A stretch of DNA of 64,000 bases. Origin: Methylobacterium mesophilicum SR1.6/6 (GTDB lineage Bacteria > Pseudomonadota > Alphaproteobacteria > Rhizobiales > Beijerinckiaceae). This document shows positions 41,705-62,721 of the stretch, piece after piece. The notes beneath the pieces are model-generated. The model searched no databases. It had not been told where the DNA came from and was given only the letters and a program-made list of their open reading frames with translations. The number at the start of each line of letters is the position of its first letter. The stretch's first letter is position 1. The translations under genes were made by a program, and so were the position numbers. The stretch spans positions 3,613,446 to 3,677,445 of the forward strand of contig NZ_CP043538.1 in the NCBI RefSeq assembly GCF_000364445.2. Reading direction: 5' to 3'.

Positions 41705-41781
41705 GCACCCGTAGCTCAGCTGGATAGAGCGTTGCCCTCCGAAGGCAAAGGTCACACGTTCGAATCGTGTCGGGTGCGCCA
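41705..41781 (+). tRNA. tRNA-Arg (anticodon CCG)
   Basis: A 77-base cloverleaf: acceptor GCACCCG pairing with CGGGTGC, D-arm GCTCAGCTGGATAGAGC, anticodon stem TTGCC/GGCAA with loop CTCCGAA (anticodon CCG), T-arm ACACG-TTCGAAT-CGTGT, discriminator G and encoded CCA. The island begins right behind its 3' end, as is common for integrative elements using tRNA genes as attachment sites. Confidence 0.95.
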
Positions 41782-43896: not shown

Positions 43897-45003
43897 ATGG
43901 GGACGCGCTACGCACCCGCCGAGCGCCTGCTGGCGTTAGGCCTCGCGTTGGCCGAAGCGCGCGGCGGTCTAACGCTCGACCAGATGGCTGAGACTGTTGG
44001 CGTCAACCGCCGGACCGCCGAGCGGCTCCGCGACACGCTACACCGCCTCCTGCCGGGCGGTCTCCTCTCGTTCACCCGCGACGACGGCACGAAGATCTGG
44101 CGCGTTCCTGCTGGGCGTTTAGCACCGCTTCAGACCCCAACGCTCGACGAGCTCACGGAGCTGCGCGTCGCGGCGGACAGGGCGCGGCGCCAAGGGCTCG
44201 TCCACGAGGCAGGACGACTGGATACCCTCGCAGCCAAGCTCGAAGCCAATCAAAATCGGCACGCGTTCAGACGCATCGACGCGAACCTCGAGAATTTGCT
44301 TGCCGCGACCGGTGTCGTCGCCCGACCTGGTCCCCAGGAGACCATCGCGCCGGAGATCCTCTTAGTTCTGCGGGAGGCTGTCCTCGCCTGCCACGCGGTA
44401 CGCCTGGTCTATCGACGCCGCGACACGGGCTCGTTCTCATACCCAATCCTGTACCCTTACGGCTTCCTCACCGGCTCGCGCACCTATCTCGTCGGCTTCA
44501 ACCCGCATCCGAAGGTCTGCGAGCACCGCCTCTATGCAATCGCCAACATCGAGCGGGTGCGCCTGACTGGTGAGACCTTCGTGCGCGACGAGACCTTCGA
44601 CTTGCCGGCCTATGCCGCTCGGTCCTTCGGCGCGTTCTGGGATGGGAAGACCTTCGACATCGTTTGGCGCTTCGCACCCGAGGTGGCCGAAGACGTCAGA
44701 CATTTCCGCTTCCATCCTGACCAGCAGGTCACCACCGATGATCGGGGTCGGGTCACGGTTACCTTCCGGGCCTCAGGCCTGACGGAGATGGTATGGCACC
44801 TCTTCACCTGGGGGCGCCATGTCGAGATACTCGGCCCCGAGGTCCTGAGAGCTCACTACCGCGCGTTTTTGGACGAAGCCGCGACGACGCTCGCGTGTGC
44901 CGAGGACACGGTCCCTTCAGAGGCGCGGTGCGTCGATGCTGACCCGATCGATGGCATCGACGCTGTAAGGCCCTCGCTGAACAACCCTCGCCTAGTGGGA
45001 TAA
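43897..45003 (+). CDS. WYL-domain transcription regulator
   Basis: A 368-residue protein: N-terminal winged helix of the HTH_11 type (RLLALGLALAEARGGLTLDQ, MAETVGVNRRTAERLRDTLH), a middle helical linker and a WYL ligand-binding domain (AVRLVYRRRDTGSFSYPILY, PYGFLTGSRTYLVGF, ANIERVRLTGETF), then a WCX-type end (VTVTFRASGLTEMVWHLFTW). WYL regulators such as BrxR and CapW control BREX and CBASS defence genes in response to nucleic-acid-like ligands. It converges on the defence operon, with 64 bases between the stops, and is the likely regulator of the island. Confidence 0.85.
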   Translation: MGTRYAPAERLLALGLALAEARGGLTLDQMAETVGVNRRTAERLRDTLHRLLPGGLLSFTRDDGTKIWRVPAGRLAPLQTPTLDELTELRVAADRARRQGLVHEAGRLDTLAAKLEANQNRHAFRRIDANLENLLAATGVVARPGPQETIAPEILLVLREAVLACHAVRLVYRRRDTGSFSYPILYPYGFLTGSRTYLVGFNPHPKVCEHRLYAIANIERVRLTGETFVRDETFDLPAYAARSFGAFWDGKTFDIVWRFAPEVAEDVRHFRFHPDQQVTTDDRGRVTVTFRASGLTEMVWHLFTWGRHVEILGPEVLRAHYRAFLDEAATTLACAEDTVPSEARCVDADPIDGIDAVRPSLNNPRLVG

Positions 45004-45067: not shown

Positions 45068-47404
45068 TCAGTGAAAGGCTTCGAGCAATGATAGCACATC
45101 GGCCTTCATATCGGTTGGACTGGTGTGTTTCGTCCACCACTCATCAATCTCACTGAACCCCTCCCCTAACAAGATCGCTTTCAAATCCGGTCCAGGCGAC
45201 TGCGGGGTCTCGAGATAGAGTCCGTAGAGGTCGGGCGCCTCGTAGAGCATCAAGCCGAATGTCACCGCCTCACTGCCGTGTGCAACTTCTATCTGAGAAT
45301 GCGGCTCCTCGCTCCAGCCAACCGTCTCGGAGTATTCGCTCTTCCGCAGGGCAGGATGCGTTATTCGTTTTAGGGTTTGATGAAGCGCGAAAGTATGCAG
45401 CTCGGCACGCGCGCCGTTCATTTGCAGTCTGCGCAGGGGATATATTCGATCCTCTTCGAATCGTAGCATCCTGGCGCTGCCGAAGCTGTAGATCTCAGGA
45501 GTATCGCGAATTACCTTGCGCCATAGATCGACGCCGGCGTCAGTCGCGACGATCGTTGCAAGCGTCGCAGACCAATCTGCTGACGAATCTAATTTGTCCC
45601 ACAGATCGCGCAGCACGCGACCTTCGTCGCGACCCTCCGCCGCGTTGCGCAGGAGGCGACGCCAACTCCACGGCTCGTCCTGAGTGATGACAAGCAGCGA
45701 GTGGTTCCGCCCCACTGGCAGCAGGAAGTCGCCAACGGTCAGCAGCGCGCGTTCCCAGACACGGCCGGCACCCGCTGGGTCGGTTTGCAGATCGTCAAAC
45801 ATTTGCGAGGCGCAATCGAGGTAGTGCTCGAACGGCTCGACTAGATCTGCCGCCGTCGACGCATCCAAGCGTGCGATTTCCGCCTCCGGTGCGTCCAAAT
45901 CGACGCCGGCAAACCGCAGCAGGAAGCCGATCTGGCCCCGGAAATAGGAGTGTCCCTCGGCCCGTCCTATCCGCTCCGGCCAGCCAGCGCCCAAACGAAT
46001 GAGGTGCGCCTTTATACGCTCCTCCGCGACTTGGAGGCGAAGGAAGCCCTGTACCTCAATACCGGGCTGAACGAGATAGGCCGTGATGTCGTCCATCCCG
46101 GCCGCAAGGTCCCGAACACCGGCGAGGCTGCGGCGCAGATCATCAGGCCGGTTGTAATCCGTATTTGTGGCAAGGTTCGTGACAACGCGCATCCACGCGG
46201 CAAAGCGCACCGGATCGACCGGACCGCATGTCGCGACAAGATACTGTACGTAGCCAGCAATTTGTACGAGCTGATCTAGCTTCAACTTCGTCGGCTGCGC
46301 GATGATATCCTTGAAAACACTCAACTCATCGAAATTTTGGTTCGCAGGGAGGTGGCGGCGGAACGGCTCCGGACCGGCGCTCCACCGTACCAGCAGTGTC
46401 GTCAGTGCAGCGATCATGTCCCAATCGAGCCAGCCACGGTCGTGAAACCAGGTGTAGGTGCTGGGCTCTGCGGATCGCAGCTCCGTAAGGTCCGCCGTAG
46501 TGCTGTCCGCCGCCGGCGCACGCGTGACAGCGATCACGACGCGCATGAAGTTCATGATTGCGTCGTCGAAGGTCGCCGTCCGTAGATCTCGGAATGGCCA
46601 GAAGAAATTCGACCAACGCGTGTCGATCTCGTGTGCAAAGAAATCAGCGATGGACCTGCCGCCACAGACTTCTAAACGCTCATTCGGAAATGAGCTCTGG
46701 AGATGGCGTTCAAATCGCGCTTTGAACGTCTCAAACGGCGTTAACGGTTTCCCGCGGGCATTCATTTTAATGTATAGATCGTCCGATAGATCGAATTTCT
46801 TCAGGTCTAGGACCTGAAAAGTGACCGCGGGAAGCTCGTCATCGATCAGTCGGCTAAAAAGTCCGGTTTCATTACGGAATATCAAGTGCATCCGGTCCAG
46901 CATGCTGATTGCAGAGCGGATCGTCGGGTCGAACTGCCAGCTCCGGAAGTACCACGGCTGGTCCGCAATCAAGGCCCCGAGATCGACGCAGTCCGTGCTC
47001 GCGGGCGTGGGTTCGTAGAGTGACAGTCCATTGATAAAATCGCGGCTCGACGGTCTCACCTCATAGGCGAACCGAGACTCAGCTGCCGAGACGAAGCGAG
47101 AACGGAAATCGTCAAGCCGTCCATCAACCCAAGCCAAGTACCAATGAAGGAGAAACAGCGTCGTAAGCCGCTGCTGCCCATCGAGTGGTCTGAATGCATC
47201 ACCGATTACGCTGCCATACACAAAGTCGAGGTCGAGCGGCAGCTTGGGATCGCCCGCCGGCAGGATCAGGGCCTGCCGTAGATCGGCGAGGAACTCATCG
47301 CGCACGATGTGCTGATCCGGCCGTCCCTGCGCGTAGTCGCGCTGAATCAATGGAATCTCGACACGACCATGATGCTCAACGAATTTGCTGAAGGTTGTTC
47401 TCAT
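45068..47404 (-). CDS. DUF262 domain protein (GmrS-like), last gene of defence operon
   Basis: A 778-residue protein. The N-terminal DUF262 motifs are clear: IPLIQRDYAQGR at 17-28, FVYGSVIG near 61, and LDGQQRLTTLFLLHWYLAW at 74-92, the DGQQR signature of the ParB/Srx-like NTP site. A middle segment includes DDLYIKMNARGKPLTPFETF and KARFERHL, seen in large DUF262 proteins. I find no DUF1524 HNH motif in the C-terminal half. The start at 47404 overlaps the stop of the upstream DUF262 gene (ATGA), so the two are coupled. DUF262 proteins sense modified or foreign DNA in type IV restriction (GmrSD, BrxU, SspE). Partnership with the HNH-bearing neighbour is inference. Confidence 0.85.
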   Translation of the reverse strand: MRTTFSKFVEHHGRVEIPLIQRDYAQGRPDQHIVRDEFLADLRQALILPAGDPKLPLDLDFVYGSVIGDAFRPLDGQQRLTTLFLLHWYLAWVDGRLDDFRSRFVSAAESRFAYEVRPSSRDFINGLSLYEPTPASTDCVDLGALIADQPWYFRSWQFDPTIRSAISMLDRMHLIFRNETGLFSRLIDDELPAVTFQVLDLKKFDLSDDLYIKMNARGKPLTPFETFKARFERHLQSSFPNERLEVCGGRSIADFFAHEIDTRWSNFFWPFRDLRTATFDDAIMNFMRVVIAVTRAPAADSTTADLTELRSAEPSTYTWFHDRGWLDWDMIAALTTLLVRWSAGPEPFRRHLPANQNFDELSVFKDIIAQPTKLKLDQLVQIAGYVQYLVATCGPVDPVRFAAWMRVVTNLATNTDYNRPDDLRRSLAGVRDLAAGMDDITAYLVQPGIEVQGFLRLQVAEERIKAHLIRLGAGWPERIGRAEGHSYFRGQIGFLLRFAGVDLDAPEAEIARLDASTAADLVEPFEHYLDCASQMFDDLQTDPAGAGRVWERALLTVGDFLLPVGRNHSLLVITQDEPWSWRRLLRNAAEGRDEGRVLRDLWDKLDSSADWSATLATIVATDAGVDLWRKVIRDTPEIYSFGSARMLRFEEDRIYPLRRLQMNGARAELHTFALHQTLKRITHPALRKSEYSETVGWSEEPHSQIEVAHGSEAVTFGLMLYEAPDLYGLYLETPQSPGPDLKAILLGEGFSEIDEWWTKHTSPTDMKADVLSLLEAFH

Positions 47405-49260
47405 TGAGTGAGCGCCTCGCTGGCGAAGAACCGTGTGAGCGTGTGCGCGATGGCGTCGGCGTAATGCTGGGCGTCCTGCGTAGTCCAGAACATCATATTG
47501 CCGACCTCTCGGCTGTAATATTTGAGAAAGACATTTCGGGTGCATACCGGCACGAACACGCTTGCCCGATCCCGCAGCAGCAACTGCTCGCGTTTCACAG
47601 CAAACACGGCGTTCTTGTAGCTGCGGTTGGTCCCGCTATCGAGCAGTGTGAGGTTGCCGAGCGTGTGGTCAGGCTCAGTAACCTTCTCCCCAAAGTACGT
47701 GAGGATGTCGCCGTCTATTCGACTGAAATCCTCGCGGCTCGTGCGATCGGTTGCCAGGTATGTCTCAATCCGCTCCACCAGTGCCGACGATCCATCGTTT
47801 GTCGATGAGCGCAGGAACGCCAGACAGTGATGAAGCCATTCCTGCTGTTCGTTTGGCCTGTCCGGGCGCTGGTCGCTCACCGAGCGGACATGCTCGATGT
47901 CCCACGATTCACGCTTGAAACTGTCGAACTGGAAGCGCACGTTCGAGTGCGGGTGCTCAAGCAACGTGGCGAGGTTGAACAGAAGCATTAGGTCACGGAT
48001 GCGGCCGTCGCCGTAGCCGATGTCACGACAAAGCGAGTCCACGTGACGAGCGATCTCGTCCGCAGCCATGGCGTCAATGTTCTTGTGCAACAACATCCGG
48101 AATACGCGTCCACGCAGGCTCGCAGCGAACGCTGCCTTTCTGGAGTTTCGACTTTCCTTAACCAGTGCTGCGATGTTGCCGATGCTATCGTGTTCTCGCT
48201 GAAGCACGAAGCCGAGGATGTGGAACAGTTCGCGATCCTCGAACCATTCCTCCAGCGTCATGAATAGATCTTTCACCCGCTGCCATTCTCGCTCGGCGCT
48301 GCGCTCTGTGCTGAGCACCCCAGCAAAGTGAGCGAAAACGCCATAATCTGCCGTGACGTCCTGGTCCGCGATCTGCGCCGCCAAGCGGAAGACCAGCCCG
48401 ATCCTGTTGGCCTCGCCGATGCTAGCGTTCTGGAGGAAGTACCAGACCGCATTATCCTGCAAGCGCTTCTCGATCTGGTCCCACTCATAAGCAATCCTCA
48501 GCGACAACCGGCCTGGCGAGCCTACGGCGCCCCCGCTCTCGTCGTTCGCCGCCCGACGCAGAAATAGCGCTCTGACTAGCTCGGTCTCGGTAAGCGGGAT
48601 CTTGCCGACGTTGAGTCGGGTAAAAGCTGCGATGGCGTCGTCCCCGCGCGCCAACTCGTACCAGATGACCCGCACGTTGCGACCCGCCTCATCATCGTTG
48701 AGGAGGTGCTGCAGGAGCTTCAGGGTGTGCATCCCATCGTGCTGCTTCACCCAAGCATCGATCGCGCGCCAAGCTTCACCGATGTGAAAGAAATCGACGT
48801 TCTCGTTCGTTCGCTCGAGGTCGATCGCCTCGAGGAAGGCGGTGTCGCGTGTTTCGTATGCGATCTTGAACGATGTCTTGCTGAGCAGCGCGATGATGTC
48901 CTTGCGATGCGCAAGGAGGATGAATAGCGTGGTAAGACGTTGCTGTCCGTCGATGACTTCATAGCTGCCATCTTCCTTGCGCCGAACAACCAGCGGCTGG
49001 AGGCAGTAGAAGGCCGATTTTTCCTTGCCCTCGCTGTTTTGAATAAACTCCCAAATGTCATCGAGCAGCTGGGTCACCTGTATACGGGACCACCGGTATC
49101 CACGCTGAAAAGCTGGGACGAAGTAGCGCGCTGGTACACCTTCATCGTCAGTGAGGAGCCGGGATACGCATCGCAGCTCGATCGATGGATGCGGCCGTGG
49201 CATCACAGGGACTGTTGGCAACATCGCAGTACCGTGCGTATTTGAGTTGCAATCATGCAT
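47401..49260 (-). CDS. DUF262-DUF1524 protein, GmrSD-like type IV restriction family
   Basis: A 619-residue two-domain protein. DUF262: FVPAFQRGYRWSRIQVTQLL at 48-67 and VIDGQQRLTTLFILLAHRKD at 103-122 (DGQQR NTP site), then FTRLNVGKIPLTETELVRAL. The C-terminal DUF1524 His-Me-finger nuclease shows WDIEHVRS (His457) and LGNLTLLDSGTNRSYKNAVF (Asn536, Asn545, Asn550) plus the following AVKR. GmrSD and relatives cut DNA with modified bases; SspE and BrxU use the same pair of domains with other defence systems. It lies 39 bases behind the DruE-like gene and overlaps the second DUF262 gene. Start uncertain: ATGs at 49260, 49224 or 49203. Confidence 0.88.
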   Translation of the reverse strand: MHDCNSNTHGTAMLPTVPVMPRPHPSIELRCVSRLLTDDEGVPARYFVPAFQRGYRWSRIQVTQLLDDIWEFIQNSEGKEKSAFYCLQPLVVRRKEDGSYEVIDGQQRLTTLFILLAHRKDIIALLSKTSFKIAYETRDTAFLEAIDLERTNENVDFFHIGEAWRAIDAWVKQHDGMHTLKLLQHLLNDDEAGRNVRVIWYELARGDDAIAAFTRLNVGKIPLTETELVRALFLRRAANDESGGAVGSPGRLSLRIAYEWDQIEKRLQDNAVWYFLQNASIGEANRIGLVFRLAAQIADQDVTADYGVFAHFAGVLSTERSAEREWQRVKDLFMTLEEWFEDRELFHILGFVLQREHDSIGNIAALVKESRNSRKAAFAASLRGRVFRMLLHKNIDAMAADEIARHVDSLCRDIGYGDGRIRDLMLLFNLATLLEHPHSNVRFQFDSFKRESWDIEHVRSVSDQRPDRPNEQQEWLHHCLAFLRSSTNDGSSALVERIETYLATDRTSREDFSRIDGDILTYFGEKVTEPDHTLGNLTLLDSGTNRSYKNAVFAVKREQLLLRDRASVFVPVCTRNVFLKYYSREVGNMMFWTTQDAQHYADAIAHTLTRFFASEALTQ

Positions 49261-49299
49261 GCTTCGTCGAGGCCTGCGGTCAAGCTGGCCGGAACGCGA

Positions 49300-52200
49300 T
49301 CACCCAGGCTTCGAGCTGGAGGCAGCGGCGGTCCGCGTCACCACGATCCAAGTGCGATGTGTGGATGAAGCCTGCACCTGGAGCTTGGCGGTGCGCAAAT
49401 TCTCCGCCTGTCCCGCTGCGGACAGCTGAAAGCCGAAGCGTGTGCCGCGCTGAAGCGGGCGCCAATAGCCCACACCTTGATCGAGAACGATGCGCACACT
49501 GGTTCCGTCCGCGTAGCGCAGCGTGAGTGTGCGGCCGTGTGGAAGGTTTCGTTTGTCGCCGCGGTGTAGGACGGCGCGCGTACTGAGACCTCGGAGCAGA
49601 GTCCCCGTGACTGCGTGACAGTGGGGATCGTGCTGCCAATCGTGCTCGATGTAGCTCGGAGACGTGGCGTGGCGGTTCAATCCACCCTGGGCAGTCGCGA
49701 CCCTGATCGTCGTCTGCGACGTGCGGCCCGGTGCGTGCGCGAGCACTTCTATGATCAGACGCAACGGGAGTGGTGCGAGGAGGTAGCGATCCGAATAGTC
49801 CATGCTCGTGAGTGGCGTCTGCCCTCGCGCGTAATGTGCCAGCACGGGAACCTTGGCGATTAGGAGCTGCCAGAAGCTCGATCCGAACGCTTCAATCGCG
49901 CCGTTCAGCTCCGAGCCGACATCAATCAGCACTGTGTCGGGCGCGGGACGCAAAAAAGCTGTGGCGTCGATGACGTCGCCAGAGTCCATGAGGCCTTCGC
50001 TATGACCGCGGACGATCGGCGCTTCGGCGTCTCCTCCCCAAGCTGGACCGGGAAGGCAACCTTCGCGCGAGCGGCTCGCCCAGAGGATCCCGCTTGTCGC
50101 ATCGCCGACCTGCGCCAGTGCGACCCCCGCTCCGACGGTACGTGGCTTTGTCACTTGGCGCACCGTGGCACCCGAGCGCATCAATAAGCCGAAGATCGTG
50201 AGGCGCAGGCTCTCGTCTGCCCCTTGCAGAAGTGCTTTCGGCCCAACGATCTCGACTTTGCGATCGCGCAGGGCCAAGCGCCGAACGAGCGAAACGGCAG
50301 GCCAGCGCGCCACATCCCAGTCCTTGGGATCGCCATCGATCCAGAGCGTCAGTCCGACGTCAGGCTTCTTCTCCATCTCGCGCATGATGGCGTCGGCAAG
50401 CGGCTGCATCTCCGCAAACGTCTCTGCCGGGGCAAACAGACGGTCCTCTGCCGGGATCGCCAAGCGCGGCAAGACGCGCTCCTTCATGAACGAAAGGGCG
50501 CCGATCCGGTCAATTGTTTGGTTCTCAAGGTCGCGCGAAAGCACGCAGTCCACGCACCCTTGTCGGCAATGCTGACCATGCCGGCAGTCGAGGATCGCAC
50601 GAGTCGACCCCAAGAGTTCGACGAGATGCGGTCCGGCCCACACGGAGAAACCAGCGCCACCAGCAGCTCGATCGAACAAGAAGATCGACCAGCGCGGTTC
50701 GGTGCCTTCAGCCTCGCGGGTTTGCGTGATCCCGAAGCCGATCTCCCCCGGCTCAACGCCGAGCTTCTGGGCCAGGGCATCGCGCAAAGCCGCAGCAATT
50801 GGGTAACCGATCGCCGGGCCCTCAAGCCCGGTCAGCTGCAGTTCGAGGACGTCCGTAATCGTTTCGTGACCAAGGTAGTGATGGCGCTGAATGGCGAATG
50901 GGCGGTCTTGCGCATCGCAGATCGGCTGCTCCTTGCGGCTTGTGCGCAAGGGGCGATGCGCCAGCATCTCGCCGGGCAGCGGCGGTGCGTCCTCCCGCGG
51001 ACCCGTTTCCGGAGCCGCGCGTCCGCAGCACAGGCAGACCGCGTAACCGTGCTCCGTTGCTCCGGTTGTGTAGTGAAACACCATCCCGTTGCGGCTCGCA
51101 CGAAATCGTCCAACCTCGGGATCGGAGAACGACGTCCACGCGCCACCGCGTGCCGCCACCCAGGGCAGACGTGGCGGCACGAAGGCGACGCTCTCGATCT
51201 CGGAATGTGGTTTCGTCACGGGGTCGCACGTGAATCCGGACGGGCGTAGGTAACGATGCCACTTGAGCGCGCGTCCGGCCTCGCCGCAGCTTGGGCACGC
51301 CTCAGGCTGCCGGTGCGCAGTGTCAGTCGCCCCACAGCGCTCACACCGCCAGGCGAAGCGCAGCGACTGAATCTCCGGGACGCTCGACTCGCTCGCGGGA
51401 CGCTTCCAGTCGAGGCGCACGCCCGCGGATCGATAGACAATCCCGTCGAGCACGATCTCCGAACCTGGCGCGTAATCACGGATTGCGAGGTCGAGCTGGC
51501 GGGAAGGCGCATCGCGATGGCGCAGGCGTTTCGAAGCGTCGTCGTCTTGATCCGGGGCCCGACGCTCCTTGATGAAAGCGTTCGAGTTGTCGAAGGGTAC
51601 GACGTCTGTCGGGAAGCCGTGCGCTGGCAGGAAGCTGTGCGAGGCGAGCTCGGCCAGCAGGTACTCCCCAGTCAGGCGCTGCATGGCGATTTTCAGCGCC
51701 GTGTGTGCTGCGCTCCGCTCCTTCGCAGCCACGAGGAGATCGGCGCGAACAACGTCCCACTCCTGCTCGAAGGCAGACCGGAGCTCGCTCAGCTGATCCC
51801 GCGTGCCGTCGATTGCGACCTCGGCACGGGCCTCAAACGGGGTGCCGCGCAGGAGCACGCTGAGGTCAGCGACGAGGCCAGCGTCGGCGCGCGTCGTCGG
51901 GGCATCGATCCAGCCGAGCAAACCCTCGGCAGGGGATTCGCCGGGAGCGGCGCGCGTGCCGTCGGCGTAGAGCCCATAGAAGTAGCCGACCTCAAGCTTG
52001 GGCAACTCGGCGCCCGTCGCGGCCAGGAAGCGCGCGAGCAGGAGCGCGTTGACGTGGCGCTGCGCAATCACGGCGCTGTCGAGCGAGACCGTTGGGGCCG
52101 CGATTGTCCGGGTGAGGAGAGAGAGGGGGTTGCGAAACACCGACAGCTCGGTCGGCCGGTGTTTGCACAGCGTGAGGGAGAGCGCGATCGCCTGGCCACG

Positions 52201-55200
52201 CCGGCCCGCCCGCCCGACACGCTGCCGGTATGAGGCCGCCGAGGGCGGCACGTTGGTCATCAGGACGGTGCCAATGCTGCCAATGTCGACGCCCATCTCC
52301 ATTGTCGTCGAGCAGTTGAGCACATTGATGTGGCCGCGCCGGAACGCCGTCTCGTAGGCGCGCAGCCGGCGTCCGGGTTGCTGGGCGGAGTGCTCCGCCG
52401 AGCGGAAGAAGGCATCCTGGCGCGCGATGCGGTCGTGCAGATCGCTCCAGTGGCCGCGCTGACGCAACGCACGCACGTCAGTATCTTCGTTCAGCCAAGC
52501 CTCGATCGCGTCTGGTTCCACCGCGGAGACGCCGCTGCGCCCGAACGCGAATGGGAAGCTCGGCATCGCGATCGGTTCGGCTGGGAGGAAGACGTCGCCG
52601 GGCGCGCGCGGGTTCGGCGAGAGGCCGCGAAAGGTGCGATCAACGATCCGACGCGTGATCGGGCACAGATAAGCCGCGCGCACCGGCGCGAGCGTGATCT
52701 TCTCGGGATCGAGCTGCGTGCCCGAGACCGAGTCGGCCTTGAGCAGCGGCCAAATCGCCTCCCACGCGTGTCCCATGCAGGCGATGAGATCGTCGCGGTG
52801 CGCCGGATTGTCGAAATCGAGCTTCAGACCCGCGGCAAGGAGCGAGACGATGATGGGCCGTCGTGCCGAGGTCGCGTACGGCTGCGGCCACGCGCGCAGC
52901 TTCTTATCGCCGTATGTGTTGCTGCCGGGCGGGACGATGAACCGCTTCGGGACGTCCGGCATGATCCAATGCAGGATCTCCCGGTCCGTGTCGACGGCGA
53001 CGTTGCCGCGAAACACCCGCGTCAGCGCGAGTGTCAGGAAGTCGCGCCAGTCGGCAAGCGTGCCCCCGTGCCGAGCGAATGCGCTGGGAGAGGTCGTGAC
53101 CCTCTCCTCGATGTGGTGAAAGCATAGGCGCAGAAGTCCCATGGTCTCGAGACTGTTCGCCGTCCTGGGCTGCCGGATGATCTCGCGCAGGACGAGGAAA
53201 CGCGCGAAGGTAGTCTCATCCGAGAAGGCCGCCTCGCGCTCCGTCCAGATCGCCTCTCGGATCCAGCGCCGGCAGATCTCATCCTTCTGAATCATCTGCA
53301 GCGCGTCCGCCCAGGTCAGGCGCATCTCGCTCGGCTGTAGGCGCGCGATCTCGTCGACTATTGGCCGGCGACCGAGGGACAGGACGCTCGCGAGTGCCGG
53401 GTTAGCTGCGATCGCCGCATCGACTTGAGCAAGTTCTGCCTGTTTCGCTTCGAGCGTTTGGCGCAGATCCGAAGTCAGGAAAGGCTGGGCCTGCACACCG
53501 TGATAGAGGAGCGCGCGCACGTGATTTCGCTCCGCGTCGCGCTGCAGCTTGGCCGCGAGGCGGGCGGTGCCTTGGCGGCTATCCGTGAAGGTCAGGATCT
53601 GCCGGCCGGCTGCCGGCAGCACGCCCGGCGTCTCGCGGTTGCCAGCCAACGGCTCGGCGCCGCTCACGAGTTCGGGCACGATGCTGCCCAGGAGAAACGG
53701 ACCGCTGACCCGGAAATTCTGCAGGCGCAGGCCCTTGCCGTCGAAGGGCACACCGCAGTGCGGGCATTGGTCCGCGCTCGTCAGGGGCAGCGCGAGCGTC
53801 CCCGGCTCGCCCGCGTCGAGGATGGTGCCGGTCGCCCGCGCTAGCACGACCGGTCGCGCCTTCGACGCCGCCGGCGCGGTGATCAGCACGCGGTGGGGAT
53901 CGACGGTCTCTTTAGTGGCGAATGGATCCTCGGAGTTGGCCTCGGGCGTCTCCTCGACGAGTTCAGTGAGGAATTCGTCCTCCGTGCGCGCCGCGCGCGC
54001 AGGCGTCAGTCGCTCAATCCCCTCACGATCCGCCTCGCGCAGCGCATCGAGCGCCGTCTCGCCGCACTGGTTGCAGAAGACCACCTCGAACACCGGGGCC
54101 TCGCAGTGCGTGCAGCGATCGAGCCGCTCCTGGAACACCGCGCCGAACGGCCAGTCCGGTCCATCGAGAAGGGTTCCGGCCCGTCCGCGGCAATTGCTGT
54201 CGGCGCAGGCCCATAGACCGCCTTGTGTACGGTGGAAGCCGTGTACCTTGAGCGGCTGCAGGTGTGTCGGGGTCTCGCCGGACAGGACTTTGCGCGCGCG
54301 GGCCGCGGCGGCGAGCAGCGCGTCGCCGTGGTTGGGGGAGACACCAACGGTCTTGAACCACTCGGCTGCCGTGCGCGGACCAGCTACAAGGCTCGCGAAG
54401 CCGCGCTGAAACGCCGGCGTGCTGCCCAGGCGGTCGAACAGCGACAGCGGGTCGGCGACCGCCAGCTCCTCGGGCGTGGGCAAGGCGAGGGCGTCGCGCA
54501 CTGGCGGCAGAGTCGGGGGCTGCCGATGTCCCTCGACGACGCTGACAGCGTCTCGCGACACGCCGGCGACCTCCGCGAGAAAAGCGGCGAGCGCGTCGAG
54601 TGTGCGCGGATCGTTCGCGCGCCCAATCGTGGCTGACGTAGCCACGAAGCGCACCTGCTCCGGCTCGACGCCGAAGGCCCGGATCACGCGACGCAGAAGC
54701 AGCGACAATTCCGCGGCCTGCGAGCCGACGTAGGAGTGGGCCTCGTCGAGGATAATGTAGCGCAGCTGTCCTTGCGAGCGCTGCAGGATGGGCTGATCCT
54801 CTTTGCGGATCAGCATGTACTCCAGCATCGTGATGTTGGTCACGAGGACGGGTGGCGGATCGCGGCGCAAGAGGTGGCGCGAGCGGACTTCCTCCGGCGT
54901 CTTCGCCTGTTCGGCGGCCGGGATTTGATCCTTCGTTTCGCCGTTGTAGAGGCAAAAGCGCAGATCGCCTTTGAAGGGCCGCGTCCAGTCCGATAGGCGC
55001 TCGCGCTGGCTGTTGATCAGCGCGTTGAGCGGATAGAGCATGAGCGCCTGAACACCGCGCAACGGGCCGCCCCGGGCGGCCGCGGCCTGCGCCAGGTGCT
55101 CGAGCAGCGGCACAAGAAAACACTCTGTCTTGCCGGAACCGGTGCCGGAGGTCACGAGGACCGAACGGGGCGTATCGGCTAGCAGATGACGCCAAGCGGC

Positions 55201-55542
55201 GAGCTGATGCGTGTAAGGGTGGCGGTCGCGCGGCAGGCGGTAGCGCTCGCGCCCGTCCGGATCGGGCAGATCGCGGCCGTCGAGAGCCGCCACCACGCTC
55301 TCGCTCAGGAGTGTGCCTGCCAAACTCCCGAAGGTCTCGCGTGCCATCGCCCAGCCGTGCGCCGCCTCGATGATCGGCTCGGCCAGGAACGCGTTCGGAT
55401 CGCCGCCCGCCGGCATGGTGGCGAGGAGATGCGCGCGCAGAGCCTGCGAGCGCAGGGCCGACCAACCGAGGACCGCAGCGGTCGAGCGCGCCGCGATGCG
55501 ATCGAGGGTCCCGAAGGCGGCGGCGGGTCGCACGAGGTTCAT
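49300..55542 (-). CDS. druE: DruE-like giant helicase with DUF1998/MZB C-terminus (Druantia)
   Basis: A 2080-residue superfamily 2 helicase. Motif I TSGTGSGKTE (131-140), PVLVTNITMLEYMLIRKED (231-249), DEAH (266-269), motif III VATSATIG (300-307). Cys pairs HCEAPVF and FCNQCGE suggest a zinc site near residue 490. The second RecA domain has VLNCSTTMEMGVDIGSIGTV and YRQRVGRAGRRGQA. A DUF1998-like part near residue 1680 has GAGFSVW, CRHGQHCRQGCVDC (Cys4) and LENQTI. Size and order match DruE, the hallmark of Druantia anti-phage systems. ATG 55542 follows AGGAAG; a TTG at 55563 is possible. It starts 28 bases behind the DruH-like stop. The last 300 residues are less conserved. Confidence 0.85.
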   Translation of the reverse strand: MNLVRPAAAFGTLDRIAARSTAAVLGWSALRSQALRAHLLATMPAGGDPNAFLAEPIIEAAHGWAMARETFGSLAGTLLSESVVAALDGRDLPDPDGRERYRLPRDRHPYTHQLAAWRHLLADTPRSVLVTSGTGSGKTECFLVPLLEHLAQAAAARGGPLRGVQALMLYPLNALINSQRERLSDWTRPFKGDLRFCLYNGETKDQIPAAEQAKTPEEVRSRHLLRRDPPPVLVTNITMLEYMLIRKEDQPILQRSQGQLRYIILDEAHSYVGSQAAELSLLLRRVIRAFGVEPEQVRFVATSATIGRANDPRTLDALAAFLAEVAGVSRDAVSVVEGHRQPPTLPPVRDALALPTPEELAVADPLSLFDRLGSTPAFQRGFASLVAGPRTAAEWFKTVGVSPNHGDALLAAAARARKVLSGETPTHLQPLKVHGFHRTQGGLWACADSNCRGRAGTLLDGPDWPFGAVFQERLDRCTHCEAPVFEVVFCNQCGETALDALREADREGIERLTPARAARTEDEFLTELVEETPEANSEDPFATKETVDPHRVLITAPAASKARPVVLARATGTILDAGEPGTLALPLTSADQCPHCGVPFDGKGLRLQNFRVSGPFLLGSIVPELVSGAEPLAGNRETPGVLPAAGRQILTFTDSRQGTARLAAKLQRDAERNHVRALLYHGVQAQPFLTSDLRQTLEAKQAELAQVDAAIAANPALASVLSLGRRPIVDEIARLQPSEMRLTWADALQMIQKDEICRRWIREAIWTEREAAFSDETTFARFLVLREIIRQPRTANSLETMGLLRLCFHHIEERVTTSPSAFARHGGTLADWRDFLTLALTRVFRGNVAVDTDREILHWIMPDVPKRFIVPPGSNTYGDKKLRAWPQPYATSARRPIIVSLLAAGLKLDFDNPAHRDDLIACMGHAWEAIWPLLKADSVSGTQLDPEKITLAPVRAAYLCPITRRIVDRTFRGLSPNPRAPGDVFLPAEPIAMPSFPFAFGRSGVSAVEPDAIEAWLNEDTDVRALRQRGHWSDLHDRIARQDAFFRSAEHSAQQPGRRLRAYETAFRRGHINVLNCSTTMEMGVDIGSIGTVLMTNVPPSAASYRQRVGRAGRRGQAIALSLTLCKHRPTELSVFRNPLSLLTRTIAAPTVSLDSAVIAQRHVNALLLARFLAATGAELPKLEVGYFYGLYADGTRAAPGESPAEGLLGWIDAPTTRADAGLVADLSVLLRGTPFEARAEVAIDGTRDQLSELRSAFEQEWDVVRADLLVAAKERSAAHTALKIAMQRLTGEYLLAELASHSFLPAHGFPTDVVPFDNSNAFIKERRAPDQDDDASKRLRHRDAPSRQLDLAIRDYAPGSEIVLDGIVYRSAGVRLDWKRPASESSVPEIQSLRFAWRCERCGATDTAHRQPEACPSCGEAGRALKWHRYLRPSGFTCDPVTKPHSEIESVAFVPPRLPWVAARGGAWTSFSDPEVGRFRASRNGMVFHYTTGATEHGYAVCLCCGRAAPETGPREDAPPLPGEMLAHRPLRTSRKEQPICDAQDRPFAIQRHHYLGHETITDVLELQLTGLEGPAIGYPIAAALRDALAQKLGVEPGEIGFGITQTREAEGTEPRWSIFLFDRAAGGAGFSVWAGPHLVELLGSTRAILDCRHGQHCRQGCVDCVLSRDLENQTIDRIGALSFMKERVLPRLAIPAEDRLFAPAETFAEMQPLADAIMREMEKKPDVGLTLWIDGDPKDWDVARWPAVSLVRRLALRDRKVEIVGPKALLQGADESLRLTIFGLLMRSGATVRQVTKPRTVGAGVALAQVGDATSGILWASRSREGCLPGPAWGGDAEAPIVRGHSEGLMDSGDVIDATAFLRPAPDTVLIDVGSELNGAIEAFGSSFWQLLIAKVPVLAHYARGQTPLTSMDYSDRYLLAPLPLRLIIEVLAHAPGRTSQTTIRVATAQGGLNRHATSPSYIEHDWQHDPHCHAVTGTLLRGLSTRAVLHRGDKRNLPHGRTLTLRYADGTSVRIVLDQGVGYWRPLQRGTRFGFQLSAAGQAENLRTAKLQVQASSTHRTWIVVTRTAAASSSKPG

Positions 55543-55570
55543 GGCCAAGAAACTTCCTGACAACGTTGGA

Positions 55571-58500
55571 TCAGGCTGCGCTCAACCGCGCCCAGAGGCA
55601 GCGCACAGCATGCGGGAAGGCCAGCTCGAAATAGGCCGGATCGTAGAAGCGGCAGACGCGCAGACGCCGCTCGAGATCCGCGCTCGGTTTCGCCTGACCG
55701 AGAGCAAGCGCAGCCGCGACGTAGGGCGCGTCGAGCATCGGCAGCGCCATCTCAGCGAAGACGGAAAGCTCGAGCGGCAGGAGGTTCTTGATCGCGCTGT
55801 CGCCTCGGATCCAGGCGTGCCGCGGCCAGTCATCGCGACCTTGGTTGCGTCCGACGCACGCGCTCGCCAGGGTCCTGACGCGTTGCGCAAGGACGCGCCC
55901 GTCGAGCCCCCTCCCGAAGACTTCGGCGGCATCTCCGACCCCGAGGCCGAGCTTGGCGGCGCGCACGTGGATCGCGAGGGCGGGCGCGATCGCCTCGAGC
56001 CCGTCGAGAAAGCCGCACGCCTCGCGCGTGGCGAGGTCCGCACGCCAGGTTGGATCGGATGAGGCGGCGCTGAGCGCGGCCTCGAGACGTTCCCGACGCC
56101 GGACGAAGGCTTTCATCCAAGCGGTGAGCGGGCTCGACACCCAGGCGAACGGGAGCTGCTCTTCGAGGGAGAGCACGAGCGGCAAGTCGTCAGCCTGCGC
56201 GTGCGCCATCACCTCGACCATCGCCCGTGGTTCGGCGCTCAGGTGGCGCAGCAGATCGAAGGTCTGCGGAGCCAGAACGTCGCTGAAGGTCCGCACGAGC
56301 GCGAGGATCGCGTCCGCGGCCTCAGGATACCGGCCCCGCCCGAGGTCGAGCAAGCAGGCGCGGACGGCCTCTTCGCGCAAGTTGCGCGCCGGCATCAGCA
56401 GAGCCTGCGCAAGGCGATCGGAGGCCGGCGCGGCATCCGTTTCCGGAGCGCGACCCCCAGCAGCGAGGAGCGGACGCGAGGCGACGCGCCCGTCCGCACA
56501 CCGGCGTGCGTAGTACAGTACGGGACCCTCGACGTCCGCCAGCCCTATCGCAGTCGCTGCGAAGTCTGCGGACGCCAGCACGGACAATGGGATTTCCGGC
56601 CCGCACAGGTCCGCGAACCGCCGGGCGACAAGTGCTATCGCGCCGCCCTCATCCTCCGGGCGGGCGCGCCATGCCTGACCGCTGCGCGCCTCGACGCGCA
56701 AACCCGCCGGGTCCGGTTCGAACGCCAGGGCGTAGCGCCGGACATCGAGGCGGCATTCGGTGGGCCCAACGGACGCGGTCAGTCGCATCACCGCGTCGAG
56801 GTCGTCGGAGGCAGCCAGCAGCGCCTCGATCTCTGCACGCAGAGCCGCGGCCGGCAAGCTCCTCTCGAACCGGCGGGTGAAGCGCAAGATCTCGCCGCGC
56901 GAGCCGCGTGCGTGGACTTCGCCGTCGATGCGACCCGGCGCTGAGGCTTCAACGGTGAGGCCACGCAGATCCGCTAGCCCGATCTCAGCACGCTCACGCA
57001 GCCGACGCCCGCTGGCGGCATAGAACGCGACCTCGCAGCCGATCAGGGGGACCTGCACCTCGAACCCGGCCCGTCCCGGTCGACGCAACTCGATGTGCAG
57101 GCGCTGCGGGAGCGGGCGATCGGACCGCGCGGTCAAGGCGACGCTGTCAGCGACCGGATCACGCGATTGCGTCACGGTGATCTGCGGATCGCGCGGGCGC
57201 GGTTCGAACGTGACCGCGCCGAAGCCTTCCAGGACGATGGCGGCGGCATCGCGCGGCGGGCGCGGTCGACGAACCCGTGCACCCGCCGGCACGATGGCTA
57301 GGCGCACACGGTCCTGTAACGCGTCGTCCTCAAACAGCCCGACTTCGATGAGGCCGATCGGGGAGCTGCCGCGATCGAGCGTCTGCCACCCGGCCCCAAC
57401 TCCGAGCGGGCGCCAGCGCAGCCCGCCCACGGGGGCCGAGGTCATGACGTTGCCCGGACGCAGGACGCGAATCGCGGGCAGGCCGCAGAACAAAGGTACT
57501 GTCGCGCTCAGATCGTCTGGAGCCGGTCCACTGAGATCTAGGCGAAGGGCAACCTCGTCGTCGCTGGCCGTGCGCAGGCGGTAAATCACGCCATCGCGGG
57601 TGGTGATGCGGGCCTGCCCGGTAAGACGGTGGAGGGTGAGGCCGGCGAACCGCGCGATGGTCTCGGCCGTGCCGGCGTCGCAGGTGATCTGCGCGTCCGC
57701 GGCGTCCGCGACCGTGAAGTAAAGGGCAGCCTCGCGCGTTCGCACGCTTCCCGAGCCGATCAGACGCAACTCGCGGGGCGTGTCTTCGTCATCGATTGCG
57801 CGGAAGCTTAGGACGCTCTCAAGAACGCGGCGCCCGGCCGGAAGCACGAACGTCGCTACATCGCGGTTGTCGGCGTGCAGGCGCACCTCGACGTCTGCGT
57901 CGAACGGGAACGGCGCGAGGAGCCGCCGTGCCTCGCTCAGGACAGCGCGGGCCGACCAGGGACGGCGGCCATCCGCGCGTCGCGTCGTCTCGTCCGACTC
58001 GGGCGGCTCAAGGATCGCCAAGCAACCAGTGACGCGCTCGGCGGTGGATCCGCTCGGGAAGAGGCGCGCGCGTGTCTGGCGCGCGAGGTCGGCAAACACG
58101 TCGGGCGGGAGCGGTTGGGTGAGATCGAGCGTCCCGTCGAGCGCTAGGCGAGCCGCGAAGCGGTACCCGCCACATGCGGGATCGCGCAGGAGCAGACGCT
58201 CGACCGTCACGGAGCCGTTGGCCTCGGCATCAGGTCGCAGGCGGACGAGGCCCTCGATCATGCGCGCGGCGGACCCATCGGCCATCGCGATCGGCAGGCT
58301 CTCGCGCCAGCCCGGCGAGAATCCGTCGAGCCAGCCCACAACGTCACTCTGACCCGCCCCCGCCCGCGCCTCGCGTCGCAGCTCGGTCAGGCGGGCGCTC
58401 AGCTGCGCGACGATCTCGACGAACGGCGCCACGCGGAACGAGACGGGCACGCGGTGATCGTGGAAGCGCGCGTGGCGCAGCGCCTGCTCGGATGACAGAT

Positions 58501-58996
58501 CCGCACCGGCTTCGAGATCACCCATGACGGCGCGTACGTACGCGGAGAGCCAGCCCTCGCCTCGCGCGGCGAACGCGGTTGGGATGCCGCCCTGCACGAT
58601 GAGCGAGTGGAGGTACTCTCGACTGTTATCCACGCCGCGCAAGAGGCCCTGGCGCCAGAAGCCAAGACCGGTCGCCGTGAGGCCATGCAGCGTCGGGAAG
58701 TCCTTCGCCAGCCCGACGGCGCCGCAGGGGCCGTCCCAGCTCCACTGCCCCTCCTGGAAGTCGCGCCGAAACCATTCCGCGACGAACAGGCAGAACACTG
58801 CACCGATATACCGCGACGACGAATCCACCATCTGCGAGCGCGCGGGCCAGCGGCCGATCAAGGTGCGCAGAGCGAGGAAAGCCTCATCGCTCAAGCGGTA
58901 TTTGTAGAGTTGCCGCCCATCAGGCTGGTCGAGCCCGTGCTGGGTGAGAAACTGCTTGGCCGTGAACGCGAACGGGTTGAGCGTTGCCGGGTTCAT
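55571..58996 (-). CDS. druH: DruH-like large defence protein (Druantia type III partner)
   Basis: A 1141-residue protein without enzymatic motifs I can name. The N-terminal 200 residues are the most conserved in style: DGRQLYKYRLSDEAFLALRT, GAVFCLFVAEWFRRDFQEGQ, WSWDGP, YLHSLIVQGGIPTAFA and HDHRVPVSFRVAPFVEIVAQ. The middle (about 300-800) is rich in beta-type segments, the end is helical. Druantia type III consists of just DruE and a roughly 1100-residue DruH encoded next to it; gene size, order and the STY4851/ECs_5259-like N-terminus fit. It is the first gene of the four-gene leftward operon. Assignment rests on context and remembered family features rather than a computed alignment. Confidence 0.65.
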   Translation of the reverse strand: MNPATLNPFAFTAKQFLTQHGLDQPDGRQLYKYRLSDEAFLALRTLIGRWPARSQMVDSSSRYIGAVFCLFVAEWFRRDFQEGQWSWDGPCGAVGLAKDFPTLHGLTATGLGFWRQGLLRGVDNSREYLHSLIVQGGIPTAFAARGEGWLSAYVRAVMGDLEAGADLSSEQALRHARFHDHRVPVSFRVAPFVEIVAQLSARLTELRREARAGAGQSDVVGWLDGFSPGWRESLPIAMADGSAARMIEGLVRLRPDAEANGSVTVERLLLRDPACGGYRFAARLALDGTLDLTQPLPPDVFADLARQTRARLFPSGSTAERVTGCLAILEPPESDETTRRADGRRPWSARAVLSEARRLLAPFPFDADVEVRLHADNRDVATFVLPAGRRVLESVLSFRAIDDEDTPRELRLIGSGSVRTREAALYFTVADAADAQITCDAGTAETIARFAGLTLHRLTGQARITTRDGVIYRLRTASDDEVALRLDLSGPAPDDLSATVPLFCGLPAIRVLRPGNVMTSAPVGGLRWRPLGVGAGWQTLDRGSSPIGLIEVGLFEDDALQDRVRLAIVPAGARVRRPRPPRDAAAIVLEGFGAVTFEPRPRDPQITVTQSRDPVADSVALTARSDRPLPQRLHIELRRPGRAGFEVQVPLIGCEVAFYAASGRRLRERAEIGLADLRGLTVEASAPGRIDGEVHARGSRGEILRFTRRFERSLPAAALRAEIEALLAASDDLDAVMRLTASVGPTECRLDVRRYALAFEPDPAGLRVEARSGQAWRARPEDEGGAIALVARRFADLCGPEIPLSVLASADFAATAIGLADVEGPVLYYARRCADGRVASRPLLAAGGRAPETDAAPASDRLAQALLMPARNLREEAVRACLLDLGRGRYPEAADAILALVRTFSDVLAPQTFDLLRHLSAEPRAMVEVMAHAQADDLPLVLSLEEQLPFAWVSSPLTAWMKAFVRRRERLEAALSAASSDPTWRADLATREACGFLDGLEAIAPALAIHVRAAKLGLGVGDAAEVFGRGLDGRVLAQRVRTLASACVGRNQGRDDWPRHAWIRGDSAIKNLLPLELSVFAEMALPMLDAPYVAAALALGQAKPSADLERRLRVCRFYDPAYFELAFPHAVRCLWARLSAA

Positions 58997-62400: not shown

Positions 62401-62709
62401 GCAGTGGATCGCGTCGAGGTAGCGCAGTGCCTCGTCGTCCTGCAGCGGGATCGAGAGGTGAGAGGTGGCGTTGCGCGCCTCGAGCGCCATAGAGGTGAAA
62501 TTGCGGACTCTGTGCTTGTCCTGGCGTGCGAAGGCGTCGTCGAACACGTCGCGCCAACTGTCGATCATGGTCTTGAGCAGGCCGTACTCGTCGAGCCCGG
62601 CCTTGGGCGAGCCGCCGGCCGCGCGGCTGGCGAAGTGCAGCCAGTTCGCACCGTGCCCGGTGGTCTCACCGGATCCTGGGCCGATCGAACAGGGGGCCGC
62701 ACTCATCAT
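59407..62709 (-). CDS. Swt1-type HEPN plus DUF499 P-loop ATPase
   Basis: A 1100-residue protein. Residues 40-130 resemble the Swt1-family HEPN domain (LLKTMIDSWRDVFDDAFARQ, MALEARNATSHLS, LRYLDAIHCLLKAV), with a possible RNase motif R-x4-H at Arg79-His84. DUF499 follows: PHPDVLANRFKEAEFAADLF, Walker A QTAFGGGKTHTM (252-263), FVGTSKGTDTS, Walker B ALILLDELVAYARQLP (365-380) and VLIIGSLPES. The end folds as a beta sheet (KVTLTLEVEVQAEAGFNDTD) and is complete. The family is usual in defence islands, often with a DUF1156 methylase, absent here. The N-terminus looks short for the family and starts 12 bases from the divergent acylase gene. ATGs at 62709 and 62706 are equivalent. Confidence 0.82.
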   Translation of the reverse strand: MMSAAPCSIGPGSGETTGHGANWLHFASRAAGGSPKAGLDEYGLLKTMIDSWRDVFDDAFARQDKHRVRNFTSMALEARNATSHLSIPLQDDEALRYLDAIHCLLKAVKAPTVEINEAKALYDAQRRSGFASAEPVVGPGPSSPPAVPAAPSRPTLTLGTVSTAPIESGPAKDLRPWIDVALPHPDVLANRFKEAEFAADLFAVDAGHAGEDYASPENFFRITFLTEGLQRILTSSLQRLSASGGDPVIGLQTAFGGGKTHTMLAVYHLAKARDLTLLEGVGDLVARAGLTGWTPPKVAVFVGTSKGTDTSLILQGGPKVHTLWGYIAWRLAGQAGLDLMAEAEAARTNPASELLVALFKLSGPALILLDELVAYARQLPEDRFEAFLSFIQSLTEAAKMAPGVLIIGSLPESVAEAGGPKGEAALLRLEKVFGRVQSAWLPASGDETYEIIRRRLFQTLDVEGEKARDETVKAFADLYKTNAAEFPPEAKEARYRELLKLSYPIHPELFDRLSKDWASLEKFQRTRGVLRFMANVVGTLWQAQANDPLITPARVPIAHERVRASVLYPLDSNFNAVVDKEVDGDSALPARMEANPSRRISQLRAATRAARAVFLCSAPLVGRPNAGLTGPGLRLACAEPGDQLAIFGEALRELTERATYLYEEAGRYWFSTQPTLNRLADDRAKALPDHEVDEAITKVLREDGATRAGFHRIFAAPDDPITIDESNALALVILGPATTHAGKGVAQSPATEVVTDTLMRCRSAQRRYRNTLLFVAADEALLGTAREVMRKALAWGEIAGDKRLRDQLPPAQMKDADEKAKASRDGAAKAVRLAWSHILFPVKATAPGTAFDLDHLSIASKDRAAIPAAAWEKVKVDSIASEKLGGGNLWVALKPLWASDRPHLAVAEVADWFASFAYLPKLRDRVVLENAIRDAVGKLDPAFGYADAVDESTGEYRGLTWAKTAPELMPPSAVLVREQAALDQLGRTSLQPVPGQSSGGVVGNGAVDPGTGTPTPPSRPSAPKRFWGSVEIDMVRPVKSFDAILNAVVMELQRTPGAKVTLTLEVEVQAEAGFNDTDVGVVRDNARQLRFKTESTGFGD

Positions 62710-62721
62710 CGAAGTGGCTCT

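What the first reader, a model, noticed from the sequence alone, without database searches (positions are those of the whole stretch)
45068..58996. Druantia type III-like pair in one operon with two DUF262 proteins: candidate composite defence system
Four leftward genes, DruH-like (1141 aa), DruE-like (2080 aa), DUF262-DUF1524 (619 aa) and DUF262 (778 aa), are separated by 28, 39 and -4 bases, so they almost certainly form one transcript. Known: type III Druantia is DruH plus DruE with unclear mechanism; DUF262/DUF1524 proteins are type IV restriction enzymes (GmrSD) and partners of other systems (BrxU with BREX, SspE with Ssp). Inferred: the nuclease pair may supply an effector or modification-sensing arm that the helicase pair lacks, or back it up against phages with modified DNA. 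I know of no description of this four-gene unit.
Basis: partly seen in the sequence, partly recalled or inferred. Interest (0 to 1): 0.85.

Follow-up and report, generated by a model that had tools for sequence, protein, structure and literature searches.

The report
Druantia III followed by two-gene GmrSD
Four bacterial genes in a row join a known anti-phage helicase system (Druantia type III) to a separate two-protein enzyme family thought to cut chemically modified phage DNA; the parts are known and separable, but placing such a cutter beside Druantia III has happened more than once and suggests layered protection.

Summary
In detail: four leftward genes, DruH, DruE, DUF262-DUF1524 (D619) and DUF262 (D778), at 45068-58996. 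The first two are genuine Druantia III. The last two are a coupled two-gene GmrSD-type (type IV) module: partner gene adjacent in 87 of 91 relatives, DGQQR in both, His-Me nuclease residues conserved in one. The module is autonomous: type I HsdR-type genes are 10 of 49 neighbour ORFs scanned, and 0 of 31 other Druantia III loci carry the pair. One unread contig length (44,746) recurs in the DruE, D619 and D778 homologue lists at 80-87% identity, so the composite is probably not confined to this genome. Type IV genes of other designs are the next gene in line with DruHE in 5 of 22 other DruH genomes, 3 families, but HsdR genes also cluster near DruHE. Best reading: two independent modules in one transcription unit giving layered defence. 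Druantia III in superoperons with type IV systems is in print in general terms. Structure predictions did not finish.

The parts
55571..58996 (-). DruH (YjiT / STY4851 family), 1141 aa, probable sensor of Druantia III
   Evidence: NCBIfam NF038336 896.5 bits (cut-off 150), PADLOC DruH3 456.5 bits; PDB 9tud DruH E 2.8e-31, best stretch residues 6-607
49300..55542 (-). DruE, 2080 aa, YprA-type helicase of Druantia III
   Evidence: PADLOC DruE3 2148 bits; PDB 9tu7 E 3e-296 over 13-2059; Walker A, DEAH, TSAT and QRVGRAGR motifs present
47401..49260 (-). D619: DUF262-DUF1524 protein, GmrSD-type nuclease subunit; start more likely at 49224 (607 aa)
   Evidence: GmrSD_N 100 bits, GmrSD_C 28.6 bits; DGQQR, E456-H457, N536, N545, N550 invariant in 12 of 12 aligned; 607-aa gene call
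45068..47404 (-). D778: DUF262 protein without a recognised nuclease domain, partner subunit; overlaps D619 by 4 bases
   Evidence: GmrSD_N 73.9 bits; DGQQR invariant in 25 of 25 aligned; coupling in relatives; PADLOC only SspE at 19 bits
59407..62661 (-). HEPN-DUF499 ATPase (HmaC-like), 410 bases upstream of DruH; homology stops at about 62661, some 37 residues short of a homologue's start; neighbour, not clearly part of the unit
   Evidence: PADLOC HmaC 779 bits; alignment to the L103 homologue starts at its residue 38; penicillin amidase gene follows on the other strand
43897..45003 (+). WYL-domain protein, convergent with the 3' end of the unit; possible regulator
   Evidence: Pfam WCX and WYL

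Best explanation
Two complete, separable defence modules lie in one transcription unit. Module 1 is Druantia III: DruH probably senses a phage protein, and DruE, a helicase-nuclease, attacks replicating phage DNA. Module 2 is a two-subunit GmrSD-type type IV restriction enzyme: the DUF262 domains of D619 and D778 bind NTP and recognise modified phage DNA (probably modified cytosine), D778 being a required partner, and the His-Me finger of D619 cuts. Together they give layered protection: modified genomes are cut on entry, other phages are stopped later by Druantia. Shown here: gene identities, motifs, pairing and coupling of D619-D778, recurrence of type IV genes beside DruHE. Inferred from published relatives: substrates and mode of action. 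Inferred from spacing: co-transcription.
For: Family and structure matches. A D619-like ORF lies directly upstream of the D778-like ORF, same strand, in 87 of 91 loci (of the misses L007, L062 and L071 start at or near a contig end and L076 is one ORF matching both). Nearest ATG within 20 nt or overlapping in 79 of 80 (choosing the nearest ATG favours small gaps). The best-120 homologue lists share 50 contig lengths for D778/D619 but 2 for D778/DruE. Neighbours of the pair: HSDR_N in 10 and the S-subunit domain in 4 of 49 ORFs scanned, chosen from 91 codirectional ones over 150 aa. Composition differs: GC3 0.79 and 0.81 for DruE and DruH, 0.72 and 0.67 for D619 and D778. Type IV genes are next in line to DruHE in 5 of 22 other DruH genomes: GmrSD in G073 and G1140, McrC in G702, G738, G742 (one genus). 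In print: two-gene GmrSD systems need both proteins and the nuclease site (PMC11411939 passages; PMC12373910 sections 9-10).
Against: No expression or phage data. The type IV excess near DruHE is not clearly beyond ordinary defence-island clustering: in 13 genomes 7 of 14 type IV genes versus 5 of 22 HsdR genes lie within 15 kb, Fisher p 0.15, and three of the seven come from one genus. Other genes also stand in line with DruHE: dcm-vsr (L101), an ARMADA-type row (L104), DUF1156-DUF499 (L103), a ResIII helicase (L119). Gene order (nuclease subunit first) seems the reverse of TgvAB and ECOR17, so the division of labour may differ. The DUF1524 match is weak and partial; D619 matches the BrxU structure only at E 0.21 and D778 matches solved structures only weakly. 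Modification dependence was not testable.
Confidence: 0.6

Rival explanations
1. Chance neighbours: the DUF262 pair landed behind DruE in a defence-gene turnover zone and is carried along, with no selected functional link.
For: 0 of 31 other Druantia III loci carry the pair (25 of them with at least 4.3 kb visible 3' of DruE); the pair is found in other contexts; different base composition; the next upstream gene, HEPN-DUF499, looks 5'-truncated; HsdR genes also cluster near DruHE.
Against: A near relative probably keeps DruE (87%), D619 (85%) and D778 (80%) on one contig of 44,746 bases (contig not read); type IV genes of other designs are next in line to DruHE in three other families.
Confidence: 0.25
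2. Integrated four-protein machine: the D619-D778 nuclease is recruited to DNA intermediates made by DruE, as the HNH nuclease ZorE of Zorya II is reported to be, and acts as an extra effector of Druantia rather than as a stand-alone modification sensor.
For: Tight spacing and common strand; a 2026 preprint reports that Druantia III recruits ZorE independently of ZorAB against one phage (PMC13192584, abstract and section 5 read); a single-chain GmrSD lies in the same 3' position after DruE in G1140; the same pair family lies between a methylase/SIR2 and a YprA-type helicase in L074.
Against: A DruE-like helicase was seen beside the pair in 1 of 91 loci (flanks are short in many); type III Druantia is described as a two-component system (PMC13316683, abstract read); both DUF262 proteins keep DGQQR.
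Confidence: 0.12

Closest known systems
Druantia type III (DruH-DruE)
   Same: Both genes, order, sizes, helicase motifs, matches to solved DruE (9tu7) and DruH (9tud)
   Different: Followed in line by a two-gene GmrSD module and preceded by a HEPN-DUF499 gene
Two-gene GmrSD systems: TgvAB (Vibrio cholerae VPI-2) and GmrSD-ECOR17
   Same: Two adjacent DUF262 proteins, one with a His-Me/HNH nuclease domain; TgvAB is likewise embedded in another system (type I RM)
   Different: Here the nuclease-bearing gene comes first (their order inferred from locus numbers for TgvAB and from the text for ECOR17); no sequence comparison with those proteins was made
Single-chain GmrSD / BrxU / HEC-06 / SspE
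   Same: DUF262 plus DUF1524 architecture of D619; HEC-06 is its best PADLOC match (80 bits); its profile matches DUF262 structures 9jfl and 20yv and SspE
   Different: BrxU structure only at E 0.21; [quoted passage not shown] D619 is coupled to a second DUF262 protein
CoCoNuT superoperons with Druantia III, type I RM and GmrSD nearby
   Same: Druantia III and other restriction systems in the same predicted superoperons (PMC11090510, abstract and passages seen)
   Different: [quoted passage not shown] here a GmrSD pair directly follows DruE

Membership tests
Druantia type III | DruE: YprA-type helicase with DEAD, Helicase_C and MZB domains | tested here: met
   Pfam and PADLOC, PDB 9tu7, motifs
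Druantia type III | DruH directly upstream of DruE | tested here: met
   NF038336 896 bits, PADLOC DruH3, PDB 9tud; gap 28 bases
Druantia type III | C-terminal active PLD nuclease in DruE | tested here: inconclusive
   aligns with 9tu7 to residue 2059, but the printed alignment was cut before the C-terminus and no catalytic residue was checked
Druantia type III | protects against phage | not testable with these tools
   needs an experiment
GmrSD-type type IV restriction | DUF262 (GmrSD_N) with DGQQR | tested here: met
   D619 and D778 over the Pfam cut-off; DGQQR in both
GmrSD-type type IV restriction | DUF1524 His-Me finger nuclease | tested here: met
   D619 only: GmrSD_C 28.6 bits over cut-off 23, partial; H457, N536, N545, N550 invariant in 12 of 12. 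D778 has none
GmrSD-type type IV restriction | cuts modified DNA only | not testable with these tools
   needs an experiment
Two-gene GmrSD (TgvAB / ECOR17 kind) | two adjacent DUF262 genes, one with and one without nuclease | tested here: met
   window and 87 of 91 related loci
Two-gene GmrSD (TgvAB / ECOR17 kind) | nuclease-free gene first (order in TgvAB inferred from locus numbers, in ECOR17 from the text; may not be defining) | tested here: not met
   nuclease gene first here; so not filed as TgvAB or ECOR17 itself
Conserved four-gene composite system | same four genes recur across lineages | tested here: not met
   0 of 31 other Druantia III loci; one near-relative contig inferred from equal contig length and source
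Hma / BREX-related type 1 (DUF499-centred) | ATPase with methylase and helicase genes alongside | tested here: not met
   only the DUF499 gene found at this locus; a penicillin amidase gene comes next; the one DUF1156 match in the genome is about 160 kb away

The most novel reading that the evidence does not exclude
Druantia III repeatedly recruits a third, modification-dependent nuclease arm of whatever design is at hand (two-gene GmrSD here, single-chain GmrSD, McrBC), and in this lineage the GmrSD pair works on DruE-made DNA intermediates as a dedicated effector, the way ZorE is reported to.
Probability: 0.12. Interest if true: 0.7.

Novelty: new member of a known kind. Interest (0 to 1): 0.36.

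Why it matters
Phages escape restriction by modifying their DNA. If Druantia III is regularly paired with a nuclease that sees modified DNA, one transcript would cover both classes of phage, and the locus gives a clean test of whether neighbouring defence modules cooperate or merely travel together. It also points to a widespread, nuclease-first two-gene GmrSD family whose second subunit has no assigned role.

Tried and rejected
Conserved four-gene system: rejected as the main reading, because the pair is autonomous and absent from 31 other Druantia III loci. Island border by a tRNA-end repeat: no direct 13-base repeat from within the tRNA-Arg gene elsewhere in window-extended 38000-82000, best ungapped match of its last 40 bases 26 of 40. 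A shared extra Druantia gene 5' of DruH: the unassigned upstream ORFs of L115, L119 and L120 do not match each other. Contig length 30,125 shared by DruE (39%) and D778/D619 (59%, 61%): not counted, because the listed sources differ and one chance match above 20 kb has probability about 0.035. Two structure predictions were asked for repeatedly, last, and had not finished; no fold search was run. Of 24 plasmid records covering at least 80% of DruE 9 were opened. Dropped before counting the 31: L118 (DruH fragment, no DruE) and L097 (YprA helicase, no DruH). Kept in the 31 though irregular: L128 (DruE-like ORFs split and on the other strand), L096 and L109 (DruE in two ORFs), L120 (cut).
Full report
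Observation. The four - strand genes are present as described: DruH 55571-58996, DruE 49300-55542, D619 (DUF262-DUF1524) 47401-49260, D778 (DUF262) 45068-47404. D619 probably starts at 49224, because the cluster marked as the window's own is 607 aa and most of the listed relatives are about 590-605 aa; the gap behind DruE is then 75 rather than 39 bases. D778 begins inside the D619 stop (ATGA). The pattern scan is at chance level: one promoter-like site, inside D619 just upstream of D778 (1.5 expected), and seven terminator-like sites (8.7 expected), one at the DruH-DruE junction. Co-transcription is likely from spacing, not shown.

Druantia III. DruE scores 2148 bits with PADLOC DruE3; DruH 896 bits with the NCBIfam YjiT family and 456 bits with PADLOC DruH3. 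Both match solved Druantia proteins: 9tu7 over DruE residues 13-2059, 9tud with a best stretch of DruH residues 6-607. Helicase motifs are intact. The PLD nuclease site was not checked. The mechanism of type III is no longer blank: the preprint PMC13192584 (outline, sections 5, 11, 13 and passages read) describes DruH as likely sensor with dimer-dependent nuclease activity, DruE as helicase-nuclease, and synergy with Zorya II through ZorE; PMC13316683 (abstract and outline read) describes a mycobacterial two-component type III system.

The DUF262 pair. D619 and D778 pass the GmrSD_N cut-off; D619 also passes GmrSD_C with a short match. In an alignment of D619 with 11 relatives chosen from the loci found, DGQQR, H457, N536, N545 and N550 are invariant in 12 of 12; in D778 and 24 relatives DGQQR is invariant in 25 of 25. 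Solved structures: the D619 profile finds DUF262 proteins 9jfl and 20yv and SspE, BrxU only at E 0.21; the D778 profile finds 20yv at E 0.004 and little else. In 87 of these 91 a D619-like ORF lies directly upstream on the same strand. The four others: L007 and L071 start at a contig end, L062 shows under 600 bases upstream, L076 is one ORF matching both profiles. In 79 of 80 measurable loci the nearest ATG of the second gene lies within 20 nt of the first stop or overlaps it, 19 with exactly 4 bases; picking the nearest ATG favours small values. Equal contig lengths in the best-120 lists agree: 50 shared for D778 and D619, 2 for D778 and DruE. So the pair is a two-gene unit of its own.

Where the pair lives. 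Of 91 codirectional neighbour ORFs over 150 aa I scanned 49: 10 match HSDR_N, 4 the type I specificity domain, 3 WYL. One locus, L074 from a Bacteroidia MAG, has a row of methylase, SIR2, D619-like, D778-like, YprA-type helicase of 2092 aa and UvrD helicase. That helicase scores alike with DruE3 (327 bits) and DruE1 (318 bits) models and no DruH was found in the stretch held; I read it as ARMADA-like from gene content only (ARMADA: PMC12458937 passages; annotated row in L104). The closest readable relatives show no DruE in the upstream flank held: L087 (61%, 8.1 kb), L089 (52%, 8.2 kb), L005 (48%, 3.8 kb).

Other Druantia III loci. I collected 31 with DruE: L096 (viral contig), nine plasmid records, four genomes of the window's class, eight of its phylum, nine of a second class. 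None carries D619-D778; 25 of 31 show at least 4.3 kb behind DruE. D778 itself matched in 2 of 385 genomes of the class, the own one and G251, which had no DruH match, and in 1 of 199 of the order, the own one. In favour of the unit, a longest contig of 44,746 bases from one source (lgn) appears in all three homologue lists: DruE 87%, D619 85%, D778 80%; I could not read it, so order and spacing there are unknown.

Type IV neighbours in general. DruH passes its cut-off in 5 of 385 genomes of the class, 10 of 397 of the phylum and 11 of 377 of a second class (samples, with overlap), which makes 22 genomes beside the own one, one of them (G631) with a fragment only. In five of the 22 a type IV gene is the next gene in line, with no ORF of 150 aa between: single-chain GmrSD 5' of DruH in G073 (L110), single-chain GmrSD 3' of DruE in G1140 (L131), McrC 5' of DruH in G702, G738 and G742, one genus, at some 70 to over 400 bases; an McrB-like stretch upstream was read by eye in two of these. 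The G073 and G1140 proteins resemble each other (23% over 648 aa) and D619 only in shorter stretches. Within 15 kb the count is 8 of 22: seven of 13 plus G1140. In the 13 genomes tested, 7 of 14 type IV genes lie within 15 kb of DruHE against 0.15 expected from random placement, but type I HsdR genes also cluster there, 5 of 22 against 0.23; the difference is not significant (Fisher p 0.15). The HsdR control was not run on the other nine. Genes that are not type IV stand in line too: dcm-vsr (L101), ARMADA-type genes (L104), DUF1156-DUF499 (L103), a ResIII helicase (L119). So the link is real but may be no more than defence-island clustering.

Composition and surroundings. GC3 is 0.81 in DruH, 0.79 in DruE, 0.72 in D619, 0.67 in D778, and 0.90-0.96 in the eleven most GC3-rich ORFs of at least 400 aa in window 1-40000, which fits separate origins of the two modules. 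Upstream of DruH lies a HEPN-DUF499 gene of the Hma / BREX-related kind (PMC12839542 passages read); its alignment with the L103 homologue begins at residue 38 of the latter, near window 62661, and a penicillin amidase gene follows on the other strand, so it is probably truncated. On a Rhodobacter plasmid (L103) DUF1156, DUF499, DruH and DruE follow each other closely, so the DUF499-DruHE link occurs elsewhere at least once.

Mechanism. I take the unit as two modules. Published two-gene GmrSD systems need both proteins and the nuclease site, and act on phages with modified cytosine (TgvAB, PMC11411939 passages; GmrSD-ECOR17, PMC12373910 sections 9 and 10). By analogy D619 cuts and D778 is a required partner; DruHE acts later on replicating DNA. 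Layered protection follows. A dedicated link, with the pair acting on DruE intermediates as ZorE is reported to, is possible but rests on spacing and analogy.

Prior art. Searches for Druantia with DUF262 (1 paper), GmrSD (3), type IV restriction and related words (19) and McrBC and related words (6) showed no description of this four-gene unit in the listings or in the papers I opened; most listed papers were not opened, and most subscription papers are not held. PMC11090510 (abstract and passages) describes Druantia III, type I RM and GmrSD in or near superoperons with CoCoNuTs, and PMC13192584 states that 20-kb neighbourhoods of several Druantia III clusters are enriched in type I and IV systems. 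The unit is therefore a new member of a known kind of arrangement.

Noticed in passing
L103 508-15985 (Rhodobacter sp. CZR27 plasmid): DUF1156 methylase, DUF499 ATPase, DruH and DruE in one close row; the window has a DUF499 gene in the same place 5' of DruH.
   Followed up: partly
window 59407-62760: HEPN-DUF499 gene looks truncated at its 5' end, where a penicillin amidase gene begins on the other strand; probable island edge.
   Followed up: partly
L074 860-20797: Bacteroidia MAG row with methylase, SIR2, D619-like, D778-like, YprA-type helicase and UvrD helicase: the same GmrSD pair family nested beside another YprA-type helicase.
   Followed up: partly
L131 2-11153 and L110 730-12238: Single-chain GmrSD genes in line with DruHE, behind DruE in one genome and before DruH in the other.
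   Followed up: yes
L112, L113, L114: McrC gene 5' of DruH, same strand, in three genomes of one genus.
   Followed up: partly
L101 16202-17790 and L105 17282-19104: dcm and vsr genes behind DruE on two plasmids.
   Followed up: no
window 41705-41781: tRNA-Arg about 3 kb beyond the end of the unit, a possible integration site; no repeat of its 3' end found.
   Followed up: partly
L121 3349-7196 (own genome, about 160 kb from the DUF499 gene): The genome's one DUF1156 match, with an adjoining ORF weakly like the window's DUF499 protein: perhaps a second, whole or partial, Hma-type locus.
   Followed up: no
L005 476-3697, L087 7262-8161: UvrD-type helicase gene and a UvrD_C fragment directly upstream of the GmrSD pair in two of its closest readable relatives.
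   Followed up: no
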